Origin: Paenibacillus sp. oral taxon 786 str. D14
GTDB lineage: Bacteria > Bacillota > Bacilli > Paenibacillales > Paenibacillaceae
Assembly (NCBI RefSeq): GCF_000159955.1
Contig: NZ_GG695970.1
Coordinates: 434,168 to 461,753 of the forward strand
Direction of reading: 5' to 3'
DNA length: 27,586 bases
Under the pieces are notes generated by a model. The model was given only the letters and a program-made list of their open reading frames with translations, did not search any database and was not told the DNA's origin. Of the stretch, positions 6,292 through 14,437 are shown piece after piece; positions within the stretch are counted from its first letter, which is position 1; each line of letters starts with the position of its first letter. A program made the translations under genes and the position numbers.

Positions 6292-7155
6292 ATGTCCTAT
6301 AAATTTACGAAATGGTTGATCCTGATTGTTCCAACACTGGTGGTCGGGGTGTGGGAGGTGGTACGCCACCAATTTCTCATGCCGTTTGTGTCGATGGAGC
6401 TAGGGAATGTGTTGACGCCGGTCATTTTGTTTGCGGTGAGTATTACATTGCAATATCGCTGGTTTTCGAACTTGGAACGCATGCAGGAGGAATTACAGCG
6501 GGAGCGGGCGCTGAAGGCCCGTTTGGAGCAGCGGGAGCAGCTGGCTCGTGAGCTGCATGATGGGATCGCGCAATCTTTGTTCCTTCTCTCCGTCAAGGTG
6601 GACCGGGCAGAACGGCAGCAGCAGGCGGCAGGTAGTTCGTATGATTGGAACGGGCTGCGCAAATCGATCCATGAAGTGAACCGGTATGTGCGGGAGGCGA
6701 TTTCCGACCTGCGGATTCCGCCAGACTCTCGGGAAGGCGAAGCGGATGAAGCCTCCATGTCGGCAATCGTCCGTCGAATCGCTGTTGAACAGCAGCTCAC
6801 TTTGCATTTGGACTGGCAGCTGGAGGAAGCGGGCTGGCCGGCGAAGGCGAAGATGGAGCTGGTGTCCTGCCTGCGGGAAGCGGTGATTAACGCAGCCAAG
6901 CATGCGGGCGTACAAGCCATCGAGATCTCGGCATCGGGAGATGCGCAGGATTTCACCGTCACGATCACAGATCACGGGTGCGGCTTTGCGCAGGAGGGTG
7001 CGGCGAGACCAGGCCGCTACGGCCTGCAGATCATGCGAGAGCGGACGAACGAGATGGGCTGGGAGCTGACGGTTGCGTCCCAGCCAGGAGAGACGACGAT
7101 TCAAATTCGGGGAGGAGGCGGTTCAGATGAAGGTTCGCGTGTTGGTCGTGGATGA
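6292..7155 (+). CDS. NarL-type sensor histidine kinase
   Basis: A 287-residue membrane kinase of the HisKA_3 class (NreB/LiaS/DegS style). Two hydrophobic segments (about 8-26 and 38-56) are separated by only a short loop. A coiled coil (about 58-85) follows, then the phospho-acceptor helix RELHDGIAQSLFLL with H89. The HATPase_c domain shows NAAKHA, DHGCGF and GRYGLQIMRER. There is no PAS domain and no cysteine cluster like the NreB iron-sulfur motif, so the signal is probably sensed in or at the membrane. Its stop overlaps the start of the regulator gene by 29 bp, so the two are co-translated. The neighbouring genes for nitrite reduction suggest, but do not prove, a role in anaerobic control. 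Confidence 0.88.
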   Translation: MSYKFTKWLILIVPTLVVGVWEVVRHQFLMPFVSMELGNVLTPVILFAVSITLQYRWFSNLERMQEELQRERALKARLEQREQLARELHDGIAQSLFLLSVKVDRAERQQQAAGSSYDWNGLRKSIHEVNRYVREAISDLRIPPDSREGEADEASMSAIVRRIAVEQQLTLHLDWQLEEAGWPAKAKMELVSCLREAVINAAKHAGVQAIEISASGDAQDFTVTITDHGCGFAQEGAARPGRYGLQIMRERTNEMGWELTVASQPGETTIQIRGGGGSDEGSRVGRG

Positions 7156-7774
7156 TCATCCTCATGCCCGGGAAGCGATCGGGGAGATATTAGCCGAGGA
7201 TGATTCCTTTGAAATCGTGGCTTACGCGGAAGATGGCGACGAGGCCATTGCCCAGACGGAGCGGTGGATGCCGGATTTGATCTTGATGGATATCCGCATG
7301 CCGGGCAAGGACGGCTTGGAAACGACCCGCGAGATCAAGCTGCGCTACCCCTATGTGAAGATCGTGCTCATTACGGTATCGGATGACGCCGCTCATCTGT
7401 TTGAAGCGCTGAAGCAAGGCGCCCAGGGATACCTGCTCAAAAACTTGGAGCCCGGAACTTGGTTGGAATATTTAAGGGCGATCGCCAGCGATGAAGCGCC
7501 ATTATCCAGTGAGCTGGCTTTGCGGATTTTGCAGGAGTTTCCGGTGAACAGGCGGACAAGCGGTGAACAACCTCCGCTAACTGCCCGCGAACGGGAGATC
7601 CTTGGCTGGGTTGCGCAGGGCATGACCAATCGGGAGATTGCCGGGGTGTTGCACATTTCCGATCAGACGGTAAAAAACCATCTTAAAAACATTTTGCAAA
7701 AGCTGCACTTGGAAAACCGGGTACAACTCACGCGTTATGCGCTGGAGCAAGGGTGGATCGACCCGCGAGGGTGA
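7127..7774 (+). CDS. NarL/LuxR-type response regulator
   Basis: A 215-residue two-domain regulator and partner of the overlapping kinase. The receiver domain has the acidic pair D10-D11 and phospho-acceptor D55 in LILMDIRMPG. The LuxR-type helix-turn-helix spans about 150-205, with LTAREREILGWVAQGMTNRE and the recognition helix near SDQTVKNHLKNIL. ATG 7127 is chosen because it follows GGGGAGGAGGCGG and begins the receiver fold exactly. A longer in-frame reading from 7073 would add residues from the kinase frame overlap. The nearest downstream gene is the CuA lipoprotein gene, which has its own promoter and Fnr box. Confidence 0.9.
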   Translation: MKVRVLVVDDHPHAREAIGEILAEDDSFEIVAYAEDGDEAIAQTERWMPDLILMDIRMPGKDGLETTREIKLRYPYVKIVLITVSDDAAHLFEALKQGAQGYLLKNLEPGTWLEYLRAIASDEAPLSSELALRILQEFPVNRRTSGEQPPLTAREREILGWVAQGMTNREIAGVLHISDQTVKNHLKNILQKLHLENRVQLTRYALEQGWIDPRG

Positions 7775-7805
7775 TTTCAATGGCTGCAGGGACAAATGTC
7801 GAAGT

Positions 7806-7821
7806 TGTGACGGAAATCACA
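7806..7821 (+). promoter_or_regulatory. Fnr box of the CuA lipoprotein gene
   Basis: TGTGA (7806-7810), six bases, TCACA (7817-7821) is a perfect Bacillus-type Fnr/Crp half-site pair, extended to TTGTGA/TCACAA. Its centre (7813.5) lies 32 bp upstream of the centre of a TAAACT -10 box (7843-7848). This places it at -41.5 relative to a start near 7855, the class II activator position. Confidence 0.75.
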
Positions 7822-7842
7822 AAGCGTGAAGCCTTCCCGTTC

Positions 7843-7848
7843 TAAACT
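7843..7848 (+). promoter_or_regulatory. -10 box of the Fnr-dependent promoter
   Basis: TAAACT matches TATAAT at four of six positions. No -35 box is visible because the Fnr site occupies that place. The predicted transcript starts near 7855, about 31 nt before the ATG. Confidence 0.5.
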
Positions 7849-7885
7849 GAGAGTAGCTCTTAGTTCAAGAAGGGGAGAGAAGCTG

Positions 7886-8272
7886 ATGAATCAACGTTTG
7901 GGTGCTGTTGCCTGTTTGCTCGCGGCCGGGATGCTTCTGCTATCGGCATGTGCCGACGCCCCAGGGCGCTATATTGGCGAATCTGAGCCGGCGGCGGAAA
8001 CAACAGGACCGGTGAAGTCGTTTACCGTTCATGCCAGCTCATCGGGATACGACTTGACGGAAATCAAGGTCAAACGGGGCAATACGGTGCAGATTACGCT
8101 CAAAAATAAGCAGGGGATGCACTCGTTGAAAATCAAAGGATACAACAAAGAAGTCCGCGGAGGCAAAACGATTACGTTTACGGCTGACCAAGCCGGAACC
8201 TTTGAGTACTCCTGCAACATCTCCTGCGGCAAGAACCACAAGGAGATGAAAGGCATCTTGATCGTAAAATAA
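7886..8272 (+). CDS. CuA-type cupredoxin lipoprotein
   Basis: A 128-residue lipoprotein. The signal peptide ends in the lipobox LSAC with lipidated C22, so it should be anchored on the outer face of the membrane. The rest is one cupredoxin fold of the oxidase subunit II type. All side-chain ligands of a binuclear CuA centre are present in the canonical spacing C-x3-C-x3-H-x2-M: C110, C114, H118 and M121, with upstream H79 in GMHSLKIKGY. It lacks the two transmembrane helices of a true oxidase subunit II. A likely role is electron transfer outside the membrane during anaerobic respiration, perhaps to NirK or to a NO- or N2O-processing enzyme. The partner is inferred, not shown. ATG 7886 follows AGGGGAGAGA. 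The 5' flank carries an Fnr class II promoter. Confidence 0.85.
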   Translation: MNQRLGAVACLLAAGMLLLSACADAPGRYIGESEPAAETTGPVKSFTVHASSSGYDLTEIKVKRGNTVQITLKNKQGMHSLKIKGYNKEVRGGKTITFTADQAGTFEYSCNISCGKNHKEMKGILIVK

Positions 8273-8384: not shown

Positions 8385-8684
8385 TCAAAAATACCCCAAC
8401 TGCTCCTTGGCTGCCTCCGACATCTGCTCCGGCGACCAGCGCGGCTCCCAGACGACGTCGATGACCGGGTTTTGGATTCCAAGTTGATCGTTAAGAACCC
8501 AACGAACACCGCCAACAATCGTATCATGCATCGGGCAGCCCGGCGTTGTTAAAGTCATCTGAATGTAGACATGATCATCTTCTTCCCGAATGTCGTATAC
8601 CAGCCCTAGATCAACGATATTTACGCCCAGCTCGGGATCATAAACCTCACGCAGGCATTCACGGATTTGTTCAATTTTATTCAT
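8385..8684 (-). CDS. DUF59 (MIP18/PaaD/SufT-like) protein
   Basis: A 99-residue single-domain DUF59 protein, the family linked to iron-sulfur cluster assembly (SufT, PaaD, MIP18). The family core is complete: EVYDPELGVNIVDLGLVYDI near the N-terminus and TLTTPGCPMHDTI with the conserved Cys, then VVWEPRWSPEQMSEAA. It is the last gene of the nirK operon, 27 bp after the membrane protein gene. The start is taken as ATG at 8684 (nine bases after GGAGG) rather than GTG at 8690, which would leave only three bases of spacing. In this setting it may help mature a metal centre in a partner protein, which is an inference. Confidence 0.85.
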   Translation of the reverse strand: MNKIEQIRECLREVYDPELGVNIVDLGLVYDIREEDDHVYIQMTLTTPGCPMHDTIVGGVRWVLNDQLGIQNPVIDVVWEPRWSPEQMSEAAKEQLGYF

Positions 8685-8711
8685 GGCCACTAACCTCCAT
8701 TTGCATTGTCG

Positions 8712-9953
8712 TTAATGAGCAAACACCATTGCGATCAAAGCGATATAAGCCACCGAAACGATGGATAATACGGCGCCTCCGATGGCAATAACGATCGATG
8801 AGCCGGTCACGATGCCGATGAGGACGGTCAAATTCGCACAGAGAATCAAGGTTAACCCGAGATTCACTTTCCGCTCGTCCAGCAGGTCGGCCAGTACCGG
8901 CGTTCCCGGGCGTCCGGCTTGCTTGCCGTATTTGTAGGTCCACCACAGGAACGGTACGATTTTGGACACGTATCCAAGCACCGTGAACGACACCCAGTAG
9001 CTTAAATAAACAAAGCCGGCTGTGAGAACAGTTTGAGTTTCCAGCAGTTGCCCTGGTGACACCAGTGCCCGCACCGCAAACATGAGCGCAAAGGCGGCAA
9101 AGATTTGGCTTCCGGTGACTGTCCATTCAATGCCTGCCCCCGGGCTGCGTTTATGCCGTTTGCTGCGGATTTGCAACAGATGAACGTTATAACAAAGAAC
9201 GGCAACAACAATCAGGTGCAGCGCGGCAATTTTGAAGCCTGTTGGCAAACCAAACAGAAAGGAAGTCGCGCCTAGCAGAACCCCTGCGTTCCATACCCCT
9301 AAGACGACGTATTCCAGCCGGGTTGGATAGTTATGGGACAAATAAAACATCGGCAACAGCTTGTAGCTGAACCCGGTGATCAACAGACCAAACCAGCCTA
9401 GCGTCCCCAGCCAGATATGCGTACCAAATAGGTTTTCGTGCAAATCGTTGTAAAGACCGGTCGCAAAATTGATCCCCATCGCCATCCCGGATAACCCGGT
9501 GAGCAGCAGGTAAAACACCGCGCAGGCAGTGCTAATGGTGATCGCGTTCCACGTTTCGGCCCGCAGCAATGTGGCGGCCAGGTTCCAAACGAACAGGACA
9601 ACTCCAGAGAATGCGAGTGTGGCAAAGCCGCCAATCCAATACGTGTCGCCTTGAATGAAGCCAAATAGCAGACCAAACAGACCAATCGTAAAAAGTGTAT
9701 AATGCACATACCCGAGACGTTCGCTGTAGATCTTCGACTGCAAAATAACGTTGATCAGCTGGTAGACGGCACCCATCGCCAGCATGGTTGCCCAGCCCAG
9801 CACAAACAGGTGCACCTGGAACCAGCCGGCCGGGCCGCGGATCTCATCGCCGATCCAGCCTGTGAGTGACATCAGGGAGGTGGCGTGAAACAGGACGAAT
9901 CCGAAGATTCCGGTGACGATAAAGAGAAAGGGCAGGCGGGACATGGCCGGCAT
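8712..9953 (-). CDS. 12-helix membrane protein, oxidase subunit I/NnrS-like
   Basis: A 413-residue integral membrane protein with about 12 hydrophobic segments, the size of a small haem-copper oxidase subunit I. Histidines lie in or near helices: H48 in VHLFVLGWATMLAMGAVYQL, H172 and H179 in LHENLFGTHIWLG, H207, H246 and H258. A pattern H-x(3-5)-LGW-x(5)-G-x(2)-Y-x-L occurs twice (helix 2 and helix 6), and a looser version LGYVSKIVPFLWW is in helix 10, suggesting an internal repeat. The paired histidines that bind CuB and the HxH of helix 10 in true oxidases or NO reductases are not seen. It resembles NnrS-like or divergent oxidase-like proteins found near nitrite reductases. Function is unknown. 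ATG 9953 follows AAGGAGGTG at ideal spacing. Confidence 0.7.
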   Translation of the reverse strand: MPAMSRLPFLFIVTGIFGFVLFHATSLMSLTGWIGDEIRGPAGWFQVHLFVLGWATMLAMGAVYQLINVILQSKIYSERLGYVHYTLFTIGLFGLLFGFIQGDTYWIGGFATLAFSGVVLFVWNLAATLLRAETWNAITISTACAVFYLLLTGLSGMAMGINFATGLYNDLHENLFGTHIWLGTLGWFGLLITGFSYKLLPMFYLSHNYPTRLEYVVLGVWNAGVLLGATSFLFGLPTGFKIAALHLIVVAVLCYNVHLLQIRSKRHKRSPGAGIEWTVTGSQIFAAFALMFAVRALVSPGQLLETQTVLTAGFVYLSYWVSFTVLGYVSKIVPFLWWTYKYGKQAGRPGTPVLADLLDERKVNLGLTLILCANLTVLIGIVTGSSIVIAIGGAVLSIVSVAYIALIAMVFAH

Positions 9954-9966
9954 CAGGTTCACCTCC

Positions 9967-10527
9967 TTAAGGTTTGCGAATTTGGACTTTGGCCGTCCCA
10001 TCCGGTTGTTCTTCCACCGTATAGGTGCAGCCCAAGCTGTTTAATTCCTCGATAAGAAATACCGGTACCCGGTCGTTGTGAATATGCACCTCATCACCTG
10101 ATTTGCAGCGATCCAAGGCTGCCAGCGTTCGAACCATCGGTTGCGGCGGTTCCAGACCACGGTTGTCCAGCGTGATGATGTTAGGGGTGGCGGCAGATTC
10201 GCCGGATCCACCCGTTGATGCCGGAGCAACCTCTGCGGTTGCTTCAACTGGTACGGATTCGTTTTCCTCTTCGAGCCATGCCTTGTTTTTCTTATGGACA
10301 AATGTCGTGATCCAATGCTCTTTGTCTAGCATCACCGCTTTGCCGACGAGTCCCTTCATTTTCAGAAGCTTGAGCAAAGGGGTCGGCTTGAAGGGGGCGT
10401 GAAGCACGAAGAGATCGTCTTTTTCCAGCTTTTTGACAGTATCCATGATGAGCTGGAACGGCTCCAGTTTGTTCCGTAGTTGCTCTCGAACGTCCAGCTC
10501 TACAATTCTGGCGTCTTGTCGATTCAT
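9967..10527 (-). CDS. Protein with two DUF2249 domains
   Basis: A 186-residue cytosolic protein. The N-terminal DUF2249 domain (about 5-75) contains IVELDVREQL and FQLIMDTVKKLEKDD. A linker rich in E, A, S and G (about 85-115) follows. A second DUF2249/TusA-like domain (about 116-186) contains ITLDNRGLEPPQPMVRTLAA and ends VQIRKP. These domains have a SirA/TusA fold but lack its catalytic Cys here. They recur next to nitrite and NO reductase genes, where their role is undefined, perhaps in haem or metal handling. The gene lies 44 bp after nirK and 13 bp before the membrane protein gene. The start has GAGGTGACG upstream. Confidence 0.85.
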   Translation of the reverse strand: MNRQDARIVELDVREQLRNKLEPFQLIMDTVKKLEKDDLFVLHAPFKPTPLLKLLKMKGLVGKAVMLDKEHWITTFVHKKNKAWLEEENESVPVEATAEVAPASTGGSGESAATPNIITLDNRGLEPPQPMVRTLAALDRCKSGDEVHIHNDRVPVFLIEELNSLGCTYTVEEQPDGTAKVQIRKP

Positions 10528-10571
10528 CCAACGTCACCTCGTTTATGAATTTGCGTGAAAATGGTATTTCA

Positions 10572-11570
10572 TTAATGGCTCATCACCGGTTCTCCATGAT
10601 CTGTCCCGTCCTGGCTTACGCGCAGGATCGCCGTAGCTCCGAGGTTAGCATCACCCAGCTGATGGGTCAAAATCAGATAATCGCCTTCTTCCATGACGGT
10701 AAACTCAACGACTGCGCCGCCGCCGGCCGGAAGCAACACCGTTTGCATGCCGTACAGCTGATTGCTTGGATTCCCGTCCAGATAGACGCGATCAAAGGTC
10801 GTCCCAACCACATGGAACGAAGAAACATGATTTGGTCCCGCATTGATGACGTACAGCCGAACCTTGTCGCCGACTTTGGCGAGCAAGGGGTGTTCTTTTA
10901 ACGTAAAATCATCGCCGTTGAACACAACATACTCCGGATCACCTTGTTGAAAAGCATCCAAATCATTTGCCGCATACCACTCGCTTTGGACGATCGTATA
11001 TTCTCGGTCGATATCCGAGTCCGTAGGGTATCCGTCCTTCGGTTCAACGATGATCATCCCATACATCCCATTGGCTACATGCAGCAGTACCGGACTTGCT
11101 CCGCAATGGTACATGAACACGCCTGGCGTGTTGGCGGGATAAGTAAACGTGCCGTGCTCGTTAGGCATCACTTCAACGAACTTCTCGCTTGGAGCGGCAT
11201 GGACCGCATGGAAATCCATCGAATGCGGCATATCTGGATCTAGGTTTTTTAAGGTAAACTCCAGCTGATCGCCTTGCTTCACGCGCAACACCGGCCCGGG
11301 GGCGGTACCGTTAAGTGTCCAGGCGGGATAAGTGACGCCTTCGGAAATCTCGATATCCGCTTGCTGCGCGGTCATTTCAATGCGGACGGTATGGCCTTCC
11401 CGTTGAATGATTGGCTCAACTGGCGGTGGATGGAGATGCTGTTCTTCCTCTTGCAGGACGGTATCACTGACCTGGGGTGTCTCCGATGGGAACGCAAACC
11501 ATGCTGCGGCAATCATGACCAGACAGCACAAACTAAGCAATAGATGCTTCGGGATGTTCCGCGATTTCAT
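10572..11570 (-). CDS. nirK: Copper-containing nitrite reductase NirK
   Basis: A 332-residue copper nitrite reductase that reduces nitrite to nitric oxide outside the membrane. An uncleaved or cleaved hydrophobic N-terminus (about 9-27) exports or anchors it. Two cupredoxin domains follow. Type 1 copper ligands are H116 (MPHSMDFH), C156, H164 and M169 (YHCGASPVLLHVANGMYGM). Type 2 ligands are H121, H155 and H303. The catalytic pair is D119 and H253 (SSFHVVGTTFDRVYLDG). All key residues are therefore present. It heads a four-gene minus-strand operon and has an Fnr class II promoter upstream. The ribosome site is AAAGAGGA. No NO reductase gene is in the window, so the NO produced must be handled by a gene elsewhere or by an unrecognised partner here. 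Confidence 0.93.
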   Translation of the reverse strand: MKSRNIPKHLLLSLCCLVMIAAAWFAFPSETPQVSDTVLQEEEQHLHPPPVEPIIQREGHTVRIEMTAQQADIEISEGVTYPAWTLNGTAPGPVLRVKQGDQLEFTLKNLDPDMPHSMDFHAVHAAPSEKFVEVMPNEHGTFTYPANTPGVFMYHCGASPVLLHVANGMYGMIIVEPKDGYPTDSDIDREYTIVQSEWYAANDLDAFQQGDPEYVVFNGDDFTLKEHPLLAKVGDKVRLYVINAGPNHVSSFHVVGTTFDRVYLDGNPSNQLYGMQTVLLPAGGGAVVEFTVMEEGDYLILTHQLGDANLGATAILRVSQDGTDHGEPVMSH

Positions 11571-11653: not shown

Positions 11654-11669
11654 TGTGATATGTATCACA
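11654..11669 (-). promoter_or_regulatory. Fnr box of the nirK operon
   Basis: TGTGATATGTATCACA has perfect 7-bp inverted arms around a 2-bp centre and fits TGTGA-N6-TCACA. Its centre (11661.5) is exactly 32 bp from the -10 centre, which is -41.5 from the predicted start. This is the same geometry as at the CuA lipoprotein promoter, so both units are probably switched on by Fnr when oxygen is absent. Confidence 0.85.
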
Positions 11670-11773: not shown

Positions 11774-11802
11774 GGTAGGTATATTCCAACCGAATATAGC
11801 GG

Positions 11803-11975
11803 AAATAGGTGTTCCGGCCAAGATTGGCCGGAGCTTAAAAGGGAAGTCCGGTGCAATGCCGGCGCGGTCCCGCCACTGTAACGGAGGAGTCGGATGTGTG
11901 AGATGCCACTGGTGATGTAATCATTGGGAAGGTCACATCCGGCGATGATGCCGAAGCCAGGAGACCTGCCTATTT
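11803..11975 (+). ncRNA. Cobalamin riboswitch
   Basis: The conserved features of the B12 aptamer are present in order. P1 arms are AAATAGG (11803-11809) and CCTATTT (11969-11975). The core AAAAGGGAAGTCCGGTGCAA begins near 11837, followed by GCCGGCGCGGTCCCGCCACT and GTAACGG. The B12 box reads GCCAGGAGACCTGCC at about 11956-11970. A terminator follows, then metE. Binding of adenosyl- or methylcobalamin would favour termination and shut off the B12-independent enzyme. Confidence 0.95.
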
Positions 11976-12043
11976 CGACAGCACTGCTGTACCTACGGGA
12001 GATAGGGAGGTGTTAAAGTTGCAAGCCATCGAACAACGGATCG

Positions 12044-12080: not shown

Positions 12081-12130
12081 GTGCTTTACGGATTGGCGCG
12101 TTTTGAACTTACCAATGGGAGGCAATGAAT

Positions 12131-14437
12131 ATGGGGAAATTTGTTAGCGGAAATCTGGGGTATCCCAGAATCGGAAGACAACGGGAATGGAAGAAGCAGA
12201 TCGAGGCTTATTGGGCAGGAAAAATCACGGAGCCGGAGCTCCATGCTCGATTAAAAGAGATTCGCTTGAACAACCTGCGTCTGCAGCGGGATCGGGGACT
12301 TGATGTCATCCCGGTGGGCGATTTTACGTATTACGATCACGTCCTTGATACAGCGACGATGTTTGGCCTAGTACCGGAGCGCTTCGTATGGAACGGTGAC
12401 CAAGTATCGCTTGATCTGTATTACGCCATCGCAAGAGGCGACGACCAAGCGACCGCCAGTGAGATGACCAAATGGTTTAATACGAACTACCATTATATCG
12501 TGCCTGAGCTTGGGAACCGAGATCCCAAGTTGACCGTCAATCGGCCGCTGGCGGCTTATCTGGAAGCGAAACAGGAGCTCGGGATCAACGGAAGGCCTGT
12601 ACTGCTTGGGCTGTTTACTTTGCTGAAGCTGTCCAAGGGGGAAACGGCGGGGGAAGTCGAGACTTGGACCCGCAAGCTGCTGCCGCTATACGTACAGGTG
12701 CTGCGCGAGCTGAAGGCGGCGGGCGCAGATTGGGTGCAAATCGACGAACCGGCTATCGTTGTCTCTTTAAGTGAGGAGGACGTACACCGGCTTCGCTTGA
12801 TCTACCAGGCGATCGCGCAGGAGGTTCCGGGACTGCGACTGATGCTGCAAACCTACTTTGATGCGGTTGAACGATACGAAGATCTGATTGAACTGCCGGT
12901 GCACGGCTTGGGGTTGGATTTCGTACACGGCTGGGACGGTAACCTGGAAGCGCTCCGGCGTTACGGCTTTCCCGCTGGCAAGACGATGGGAGCGGGACTG
13001 ATTGACGGGCGGAACATTTGGCGCACGGATTTAGATGAGGCGCTTAGCCTGGTGAAGACGATTTCGCTCCAGTCCGGAGCGCCGGATGTGATCGTGCAGC
13101 CTTCCTGCAGCTTGCTGCATGTCCCGGTATCTGCTGCAGGGGAAGAGCGGCTTAATCCGGTATTGCGCGATGCGTTGGCCTTTGCCGAGCAGAAGCTGGA
13201 GGAGTTGGTGAGCTTAAGCAGGGCGGCAAATGGGGAAGAACCAGAGCCGGTGCAGTTCGCCGAGAATCGTCGCGCCTTGGCTGTACTTGCCGCAGATCCG
13301 GCCCGCAGCCTTGCTTCGGTGCGGGAAGAAGCAGCGCAGACTGCAGCGGCTCCGGCCGAGCGCGCCAGCGATTTCGCCGATCGGCGGCGGAAGCAGCAGG
13401 CAAAGTGGCAGTTGCCGTTCCTGCCGACCACAACGATCGGCAGTTTCCCGCAAACCGCCGAGGTTCGGGCCGCCCGGCAGAAATGGCGTAAAGGCGAGTG
13501 GAGCCCAGAGAAGTACGAGGCGTTCATTCTAGCGGAAATCCGCAAATGGGTTGAGCTCCAGGAGGAGATCGGGCTCGACGTATTGGTGCACGGTGAATTC
13601 GAGCGCACCGATATGGTGGAATTTTTCGGAGAGAAGCTTCCGGGATTTGCGTTTACGCAAGGAGGCTGGGTACAGTCCTACGGCACGCGCTGCGTAAAAC
13701 CGCCGATCATTTATGGAGACGTCGAATTTGCGGGGCCAATGACCGTTAAGGAAACGGCCTATGCCCAGAGCTTGACGAACAAACCGGTGAAAGGGATGCT
13801 AACGGGACCGATCACTATCCTAAACTGGTCCTTTGTTCGCAGCGACCTGTCCCGGGAGCAGGTGGCTTATCAAATTGCTCTGGCTCTGCGAAGGGAAGTC
13901 GAGGCGTTGGAGGAAGCGGGGATCGAGATGATCCAAGTGGACGAGCCTGCGCTGCGCGAAGGGCTGCCGCTCAAGCAGAAGGATTGGGCGAACTATTTGA
14001 AGTGGGCGGTGAAGGCGTTCCGCGTGACGACCTCATCGGTCCGGGATACGACGCAGATTCATACGCATATGTGCTACTGCGAATTTGACGATATCTTGGA
14101 GGAGATCCGTGCGCTGGATGCCGATGTGATCTCGATCGAAACGTCGCGCAGCCACGGCGAGCTGATCCAGAGTTTTGAGAAGCATACGTATCCGCTTGGA
14201 ATTGGGCTGGGGGTTTACGACATTCATAGCCCGCGCGTCCCGTCTGCGGAGGAGATGGTACGGTTGATCGAGCGGGCGCTCCAAGTTTTGGACCCGGAAC
14301 TTTTCTGGGTGAACCCTGATTGCGGCTTGAAAACGAGAGGACAACACGAAACGGTCGCAGCGCTGCGGCAAATGACGGCGGCAGCAGAGCAGGTTCGCAG
14401 CAAATTTGGACGTGGAACGCAGGCAACACGGCAGTGA
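12131..14437 (+). CDS. metE: Cobalamin-independent methionine synthase
   Basis: MetE (768 aa) transfers a methyl group from methyl-tetrahydrofolate (triglutamate) to homocysteine to make methionine without B12. The N-terminal half begins with GNLGYPRIGRQREWKK, a family hallmark. The C-terminal catalytic half starts at LPTTTIGSFPQTAEVR (about 434) and has the zinc ligands in IHTHMCYCEF and NPDCGLKTR. Length matches the family. ATG 12131 is preferred: GGGAGG lies eight bases upstream, whereas ATG 12125 would have only two bases of spacing. Control by the upstream cobalamin riboswitch implies that the organism takes up or makes B12 and has a B12-dependent MetH elsewhere. No clear terminator follows. 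Confidence 0.97.
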   Translation: MGKFVSGNLGYPRIGRQREWKKQIEAYWAGKITEPELHARLKEIRLNNLRLQRDRGLDVIPVGDFTYYDHVLDTATMFGLVPERFVWNGDQVSLDLYYAIARGDDQATASEMTKWFNTNYHYIVPELGNRDPKLTVNRPLAAYLEAKQELGINGRPVLLGLFTLLKLSKGETAGEVETWTRKLLPLYVQVLRELKAAGADWVQIDEPAIVVSLSEEDVHRLRLIYQAIAQEVPGLRLMLQTYFDAVERYEDLIELPVHGLGLDFVHGWDGNLEALRRYGFPAGKTMGAGLIDGRNIWRTDLDEALSLVKTISLQSGAPDVIVQPSCSLLHVPVSAAGEERLNPVLRDALAFAEQKLEELVSLSRAANGEEPEPVQFAENRRALAVLAADPARSLASVREEAAQTAAAPAERASDFADRRRKQQAKWQLPFLPTTTIGSFPQTAEVRAARQKWRKGEWSPEKYEAFILAEIRKWVELQEEIGLDVLVHGEFERTDMVEFFGEKLPGFAFTQGGWVQSYGTRCVKPPIIYGDVEFAGPMTVKETAYAQSLTNKPVKGMLTGPITILNWSFVRSDLSREQVAYQIALALRREVEALEEAGIEMIQVDEPALREGLPLKQKDWANYLKWAVKAFRVTTSSVRDTTQIHTHMCYCEFDDILEEIRALDADVISIETSRSHGELIQSFEKHTYPLGIGLGVYDIHSPRVPSAEEMVRLIERALQVLDPELFWVNPDCGLKTRGQHETVAALRQMTAAAEQVRSKFGRGTQATRQ

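What the first reader, a model, noticed from the sequence alone, without database searches (positions are those of the whole stretch)
8385..11570. Compact nirK operon with an uncharacterised 12-helix oxidase-like protein and no recognisable NO reductase
NirK makes toxic NO. The operon has no norB/qNor-type gene, but contains a 413-residue, histidine-bearing, 12-helix protein of oxidase subunit I size lacking the usual CuB histidines, plus double-DUF2249 and DUF59 proteins. Together with the co-regulated CuA lipoprotein it resembles a subunit I/subunit II split. It could be a new NO-handling or electron-transfer complex, or an NnrS-like NO-protection protein.
Basis: partly seen in the sequence, partly recalled or inferred. 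Interest (0 to 1): 0.75.

Follow-up and report, generated by a model that had tools for sequence, protein, structure and literature searches.

The report
Nitrite-linked, one-haem oxidase-like membrane protein
Next to the gene for a nitric-oxide-making enzyme, this bacterium carries a membrane protein folded like a respiratory oxidase but with room for probably only one haem; the two genes nearly always occur together in its family, and the protein most likely guards against nitric oxide or serves that enzyme.

The parts
10572..11570 (-). nirK, copper nitrite reductase (332 aa), first gene of the operon
   Evidence: alignment with the solved nitrite reductase 3wi9 including the segments that carry the type 1 and type 2 copper ligands (ligand identity recalled)
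9967..10527 (-). double-DUF2249 protein (186 aa)
   Evidence: PF10006, two stretches, E 4e-26; also TusA PF01206 E 2e-8
8712..9953 (-). TM12: 413-aa, 12-helix protein with the haem-copper oxidase/NOR subunit I fold; conserved H48 and H179
8385..8690 (-). DUF59-type iron-sulphur assembly protein
   Evidence: PF01883 E 1e-18; PDB 2cu6 E 4e-24
7886..8272 (+). CuA-type cupredoxin lipoprotein
   Evidence: aligns with oxidase subunit II CuA domains; lipobox LSAC read directly
11654..11669 (.). Fnr-type box TGTGA-N6-TCACA, 83 nt before nirK
7806..7821 (.). Fnr-type box TGTGA-N6-TCACA, 64 nt before the CuA gene
6292..7155 (+). sensor histidine kinase (NarQ/NarX-type transmitter; start not fixed)
   Evidence: kept beside the operon in L034-L041
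7127..7774 (+). NarL-type response regulator (listed ORF begins at 7073)
   Evidence: NarL model E 1e-50; kept in L034-L041

Best explanation
TM12 is an accessory protein of nitrite/nitric-oxide metabolism with the haem-copper oxidase fold and, most likely, a single b-type haem held by H48 (TM2) and H179 (TM6). It is made under low oxygen together with NirK and works by binding or trapping NO at the membrane, in the manner proposed for NnrS, while its operon partners (DUF2249, DUF59; ScdA/RIC in a few relatives) keep or repair iron-sulphur or other metal centres that NO damages. Shown here by computation: operon, predicted fold, absence of catalytic ligands, conserved histidines, co-occurrence with nirK, recurring Fnr-type boxes, exchange with scdA. 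Inferred: haem binding, place of the haem, low-oxygen induction, NO as the ligand, protection as the role, function of the partner genes.
Against: No haem binding, NO binding or phenotype is measured. The register match is weaker for A-type oxidases (46 ranks second for TM10, z 3.1 behind 82 at 3.7; second for TM2 behind 50) and absent for qNOR TM2; z is against other windows of the same protein, not shuffles. Position 46 is His in 55 of 100 (Gln in the window), and H84, H172, H207, H258 are His in 81-92 of 100, so other ligands are possible. 22 of 80 named loci show none of the listed nitrogen-oxide genes nearby. G184 has nirK without TM12, NOR-size frame or detected globin, so TM12 is not indispensable. 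A globin of flavohaemoglobin size is present in 28 of 32 genomes. Class-wide hits include remote members and a few short frames (G339, G370) that may do something else. The Fisher values ignore relatedness, and nirK and TM12 are often neighbours, so joint transfer explains part of the pairing.
Confidence: 0.48

Rival explanations
1. Electron-supply protein: TM12 oxidises menaquinol through its one haem and passes electrons outward to NirK, directly or via the CuA lipoprotein.
For: Near-exclusive pairing with nirK in the family, same operon or island, box shared with the CuA gene. PMC3475470 (passages read) says that Bacillus azotoformans nitrite reductase could use menaquinol and that how was unresolved.
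Against: TM12 occurs without detected nirK in 3 of 31 family genomes and in 6 of 13 genomes reached through named loci, one of which (L116) is G031 again. A CuA gene is near TM12 in 17 of 80 loci. One haem gives no obvious route across the membrane. DUF2249, DUF59 and ScdA are not known electron carriers to the outside (recalled).
Confidence: 0.2
2. Maturation factor: TM12 with DUF2249 and DUF59 inserts or repairs a metal centre of NirK, NOR or nitrate reductase.
For: DUF59 is an Fe-S assembly domain; ScdA takes the upstream place in 3 of 80 loci; hemY (11) and a radical SAM gene (9) lie near in some of 80 loci.
Against: NirK is a copper enzyme outside the membrane while DUF59 and DUF2249 proteins look cytoplasmic (no signal peptide seen); an oxidase fold is unusual for a chaperone; G184 keeps nirK without TM12.
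Confidence: 0.15
3. A real NO reductase or other NO-consuming enzyme of a new type that takes the place of qNOR.
For: 20 of 28 nirK+TM12+ family genomes, G001 among them, have no recognisable haem-copper NOR. Invariant Q65, K198, K331 stand at matching places of the three repeats.
Against: No second haem site or FeB/CuB ligands, which known haem-copper NORs need (recalled); TM12 coexists with a qNOR-size frame in 8 of 28 family genomes and 14 of 20 others.
Confidence: 0.08
4. NO or redox sensor that signals to the adjoining NarX/NarL-like pair.
For: Kinase and regulator genes next door in the window and close relatives.
Against: The kinase was found near TM12 in 10 and this regulator in 11 of 80 named loci.
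Confidence: 0.05

Closest known systems
HCO-homology (HCOH) proteins incl. NnrS (Pei, Li, Kinch, Grishin 2014, Protein Sci 23:1220)
   Same: As recalled: 12 helices in three repeats, oxidase fold, mostly two conserved histidines, proposed single haem, denitrification context. The paper is not held; I saw only its citation in PMC11218638.
   Different: NnrS PF05940 not matched by 26 members. Whether this exact family is in that paper I could not check.
NO reductase subunit NorB and cbb3 subunit CcoN
   Different: No FeB/CuB ligands, no TM10 histidines, one candidate haem site
DUF2249 proteins of denitrification: DrpA/DrpB of Thermus thermophilus and those of Haloferax mediterranei
   Same: DUF2249 genes beside nar or nirK and linked to denitrification (PMC6282519, PMC11218638, passages read)
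   Different: The passages I read do not describe a DUF2249-TM12-DUF59 unit
ScdA/YtfE (RIC) iron-sulphur repair protein
   Same: scdA directly precedes TM12 in 3 of 80 loci; same class of stress (role of RIC recalled)
   Different: Not in the window; hemerythrin-type protein, different fold

Membership tests
Haem-copper oxidase superfamily (fold level) | 12-helix subunit I fold | tested here: met
Haem-copper oxidase/NOR catalytic subunit | six-histidine set: TM2, TM6, TM7 HH, TM10 HxH (set recalled) | tested here: not met
   no conserved His in TM7, none at TM10 ligand positions 312/314
Haem-copper oxidase/NOR catalytic subunit | COX1 PF00115 above curated cut-off | tested here: inconclusive
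   window protein: no match; 4 of 5 relatives scanned score 26.1-35.7 bits against 34.8, the paralogue none; 17 of 26 match at E<=1
NnrS | Pfam NnrS PF05940 | tested here: not met
   7 families matched among 26 members at E<=1, NnrS not one of them
NnrS | protects from NO; haem protein | not testable with these tools
   needs wet work
Three-repeat HCOH protein (definition recalled) | three internal repeats | tested here: met
   windows 46, 179, 312 align, z 3.6-6.4
Three-repeat HCOH protein (definition recalled) | two conserved histidines for one haem | tested here: met
   H48 100/100, H179 99/100; haem itself untested. H84, H172, H207, H258 are also common (81-92 of 100)
Copper nitrite reductase NirK | TIGR02376 cut-off | tested here: not met
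   207.5 bits vs 296.3; none of 196 family genomes passes it either
Copper nitrite reductase NirK | copper-ligand segments | tested here: met
   alignment with 3wi9; ligand positions recalled
CuA domain | His plus C-x3-C-x3-H-x2-M | tested here: met
   aligned with 2lln/2cua

The most novel reading that the evidence does not exclude
nirK bacteria without any known NO reductase rely on this protein as a new kind of NO-handling membrane enzyme, with its only haem in the oxidase pore that solved haem-copper enzymes leave empty (as recalled: pore A, between helices 2 and 6), and with the invariant Q65/K198/K331 around the pseudo-threefold axis serving protons or an anion.
Probability: 0.1. Interest if true: 0.88.

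Novelty: new variant of a known kind. Interest (0 to 1): 0.55.

Why it matters
20 of 28 nirK+TM12+ genomes here show no haem-copper NO reductase; how such bacteria survive their own NO is open, and this operon gives a concrete, deletable candidate in cultivable Paenibacillus. If the haem is where the repeat register puts it, the oxidase fold can host haem in a third position, which bears on how oxidases and NO reductases evolved. It also ties DUF2249 and DUF59 proteins to nitrite/NO metabolism in Gram-positive bacteria.

Tried and rejected
Profile-profile alignment of TM12 with small home-made sets of qNOR, A-type and B-type oxidases found no match (shallow alignments); window-by-window profile scoring was used instead. 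That scoring goes partly against me: for A-type oxidases another register ranked first for TM10 (82) and for TM2 (50), qNOR TM2 did not match, and no shuffle control was run.

PDB sequence searches with TM12 or its profile gave nothing significant. A second protein search with the alignment listed no wider kin: its 120 listed rows are nearly all those. Literature, open-licence library only: no paper holds DUF2249 with DUF59; one holds DUF2249 with 'heme-copper oxidase'; none holds two of HCOH, heme-copper oxidase homology, NnrS. Listings only were seen for beyond the papers named in the report.

Considered and dropped: 'ordinary oxidase' (no ligands). 'NirS instead of NirK in TM12+ nirK- genomes': PF02239 matched 3 of 11 genomes (G001, G184, G209) with pieces of 21-28 bits; only G209 is TM12+ nirK-; probably other beta-propellers (inference). 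'TM12 follows nitrate reductase': narG in 20 of 31 TM12+ against 46 of 165 TM12- genomes (Fisher 1.4e-4), far weaker than nirK, and not found in G001.

Limits. The PF00115 search can miss very divergent NORs: it missed TM12 itself in many genomes. I judged NOR by frame size (757-916 aa); sequences were read only for those. The 545-593 aa frames of G003 and G011 read as ba3-type oxidases (GHPLVY kept); one of G029 (L188) reads as NOR-like (that Tyr lost). L192 gave a wrong-strand ORF and was not used. Frames were judged by size alone. 'Globin of flavohaemoglobin size' rests on PF00042 and frame length. The narK-like count may include other transporters (down to 26% identity). The family is called Paenibacillaceae from the named loci; the tool gives only f1. 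The 111 rows hold 100 distinct sequences; two of its nine divergent rows (L114, L060) are the same gene.

Full report
What is there. The window has a compact minus-strand operon, nirK - double DUF2249 - TM12 - DUF59 (11570 down to 8385), with gaps of 44, 13 and 21 bp. Convergent to it lie a kinase, a NarL-type regulator and a CuA lipoprotein (6292-8272). NirK aligns over residues 43-331 with the solved nitrite reductase 3wi9 (Geobacillus, as recalled). The CuA protein aligns with soluble CuA domains of oxidase subunit II. DUF59 aligns with PDB 2cu6; the DUF2249 protein has no PDB relative by sequence at E<=1. The organism is a Paenibacillus near P. barengoltzii (TM12 94% identical in L066); the nearest held genome, G001, shares 93% of sampled words and its TM12 is 99% identical.

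Ligands. In 100 distinct sequences H48 is invariant and H179 is kept in 99. Both hold in the most divergent copies too (26-42% identity), where H84, H172, H207 and H258 are not all kept. No TM7 position has His in more than 6 of 100; in TM10 only H340, at the cytoplasmic end, is common (66 of 100); 312 and 314 have no conserved His. The three repeats of TM12 align on themselves at 46, 179 and 312 (z 3.6-6.4). TM10 HxH segments fall on register 46 best for B-type oxidases and qNOR, second best for A-type. H48 thus corresponds to the second and H179 to the first histidine of HxH. In oxidases the low-spin haem is held by the second TM10 histidine and the TM2 histidine (recalled). The same pair, moved on by one repeat, is TM2-H48 with TM6-H179. 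That predicts one bis-histidine haem between repeats 1 and 2, in the pore that oxidases leave empty (recalled). Q65, K198, K331, Y328 and P334 are invariant in 100 of 100 and unexplained. Position 46 is His in 55 of 100 but Gln in the window.

Distribution. Of 196 genomes of the family, 31 have TM12 and 29 have NirK at 194-217 bits, with the next match at 110; 28 have both, G184 has NirK only, G029, G031 and G058 TM12 only, 164 neither (Fisher 2e-29; genus g1 alone 9 both, 12 neither, p 3e-6). NarG is less tightly linked (20 of 31 against 46 of 165). Class-wide, 79 of 398 genomes have a family member at E<=0.001 and 38 have NirK at E<=1e-40; 34 have both. These tests do not correct for relatedness or joint transfer. 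Of 13 genomes reached through named TM12 loci, 6 had no NirK; two of the 13 (L116, L114) are G031 and G011 again.

NO reductase. Among the 31 TM12+ genomes, frames of qNOR size occur in 8 (read), all of them nirK+; so 20 of 28 nirK+TM12+ genomes show none. G001 has a caa3 oxidase and a quinol oxidase. A globin frame of flavohaemoglobin size is found in 28 of 32 genomes including G001. Outside the family, 14 of 20 nirK genomes with a TM12-family protein also have a qNOR-size frame. TM12 is therefore better seen as an accessory of NO metabolism than as a plain replacement for qNOR.

Neighbours. Of 80 named loci kept from 102 found, 77 have DUF2249 just upstream and DUF59 just downstream of TM12. 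In the other three (L119, L126, L130) scdA/ric lies immediately upstream instead; L126 has DUF2249 and DUF59 about 9 kb further on. Near TM12 are NirK in 32, NarG in 19, NarK-like in 23, a CuA gene in 17, scdA in 10, hemY in 11, qNOR in 5 of 80; 66 of the 80 have full flanks on both sides, and 22 show none of the nitrogen-oxide genes. NirK lies on the same strand within 2.5 kb in 26 of 80.

Regulation. The only two perfect TGTGA-N6-TCACA sites in 27.6 kb lie before nirK and before the CuA gene (shuffle mean 0.02). In 32 fetched loci a box with at most one mismatch lies before nirK or the first gene of the triad operon in 30 (26 perfect); L059 and L065 have none, L065 being cut off by its contig end. 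The box matches the Bacillus Fnr consensus as recalled; binding is untested.

Mechanism. The Fnr-type box, the link with nirK and, without nirK, with nar or qNOR, and the exchange with scdA fit a membrane NO-protection protein with cytosolic Fe-S partners. Electron supply to NirK fits the nirK link well but not the nirK-less genomes.

Known or new. The kind (12-helix oxidase homologues with two histidines, NnrS among them) was, as I recall, described in 2014 (Pei et al.); I could not read that paper. The passages I read in PMC11218638, PMC6282519, PMC3475470, PMC11388526 and PMC1274295 do not describe this unit. Hence: new variant of a known kind.

Noticed in passing
11790-11987 (+): Cobalamin riboswitch (Rfam RF00174, 112.5 bits) in front of the metE-like ORF 12125-14437, between nirK and that gene.
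   Followed up: no
L003 1474-1863 (-), in G001: A 129-aa, oxidase-like protein with an HAH motif (COX1 E 4e-7, DUF2871 E 2.5e-4); its repeat matches all three TM12 repeats. A single-repeat relative of the same fold.
   Followed up: partly
L104, L120, L136, L091, L144, L127, L060 (second copies): A second TM12 paralogue (26-30% identity) near the first, in some loci beside radical SAM and hemY genes; it keeps H48, Q65, H179, K198, K331.
   Followed up: partly
L095, L104, L124 and others, upstream of the triad: An unknown ~115-120 aa protein (36 of 80 named loci) and a single-DUF2249 gene (49 of 80) lie near TM12 and often open the operon in relatives; neither is seen in the window operon.
   Followed up: no
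G155:C283:564091-565319 (L064): TM12 gene in two pieces, with a stop codon in one, in one genome; nirK present about 15 kb away.
   Followed up: no
TM12 residues 65, 198, 331 (8712-9953, -): Q65, K198 and K331, at matching positions of the three repeats, are invariant in 100 of 100 distinct sequences; no function known to me.
   Followed up: no
G184 (L190): nirK with neither TM12, a NOR-size frame nor a detected globin.
   Followed up: partly
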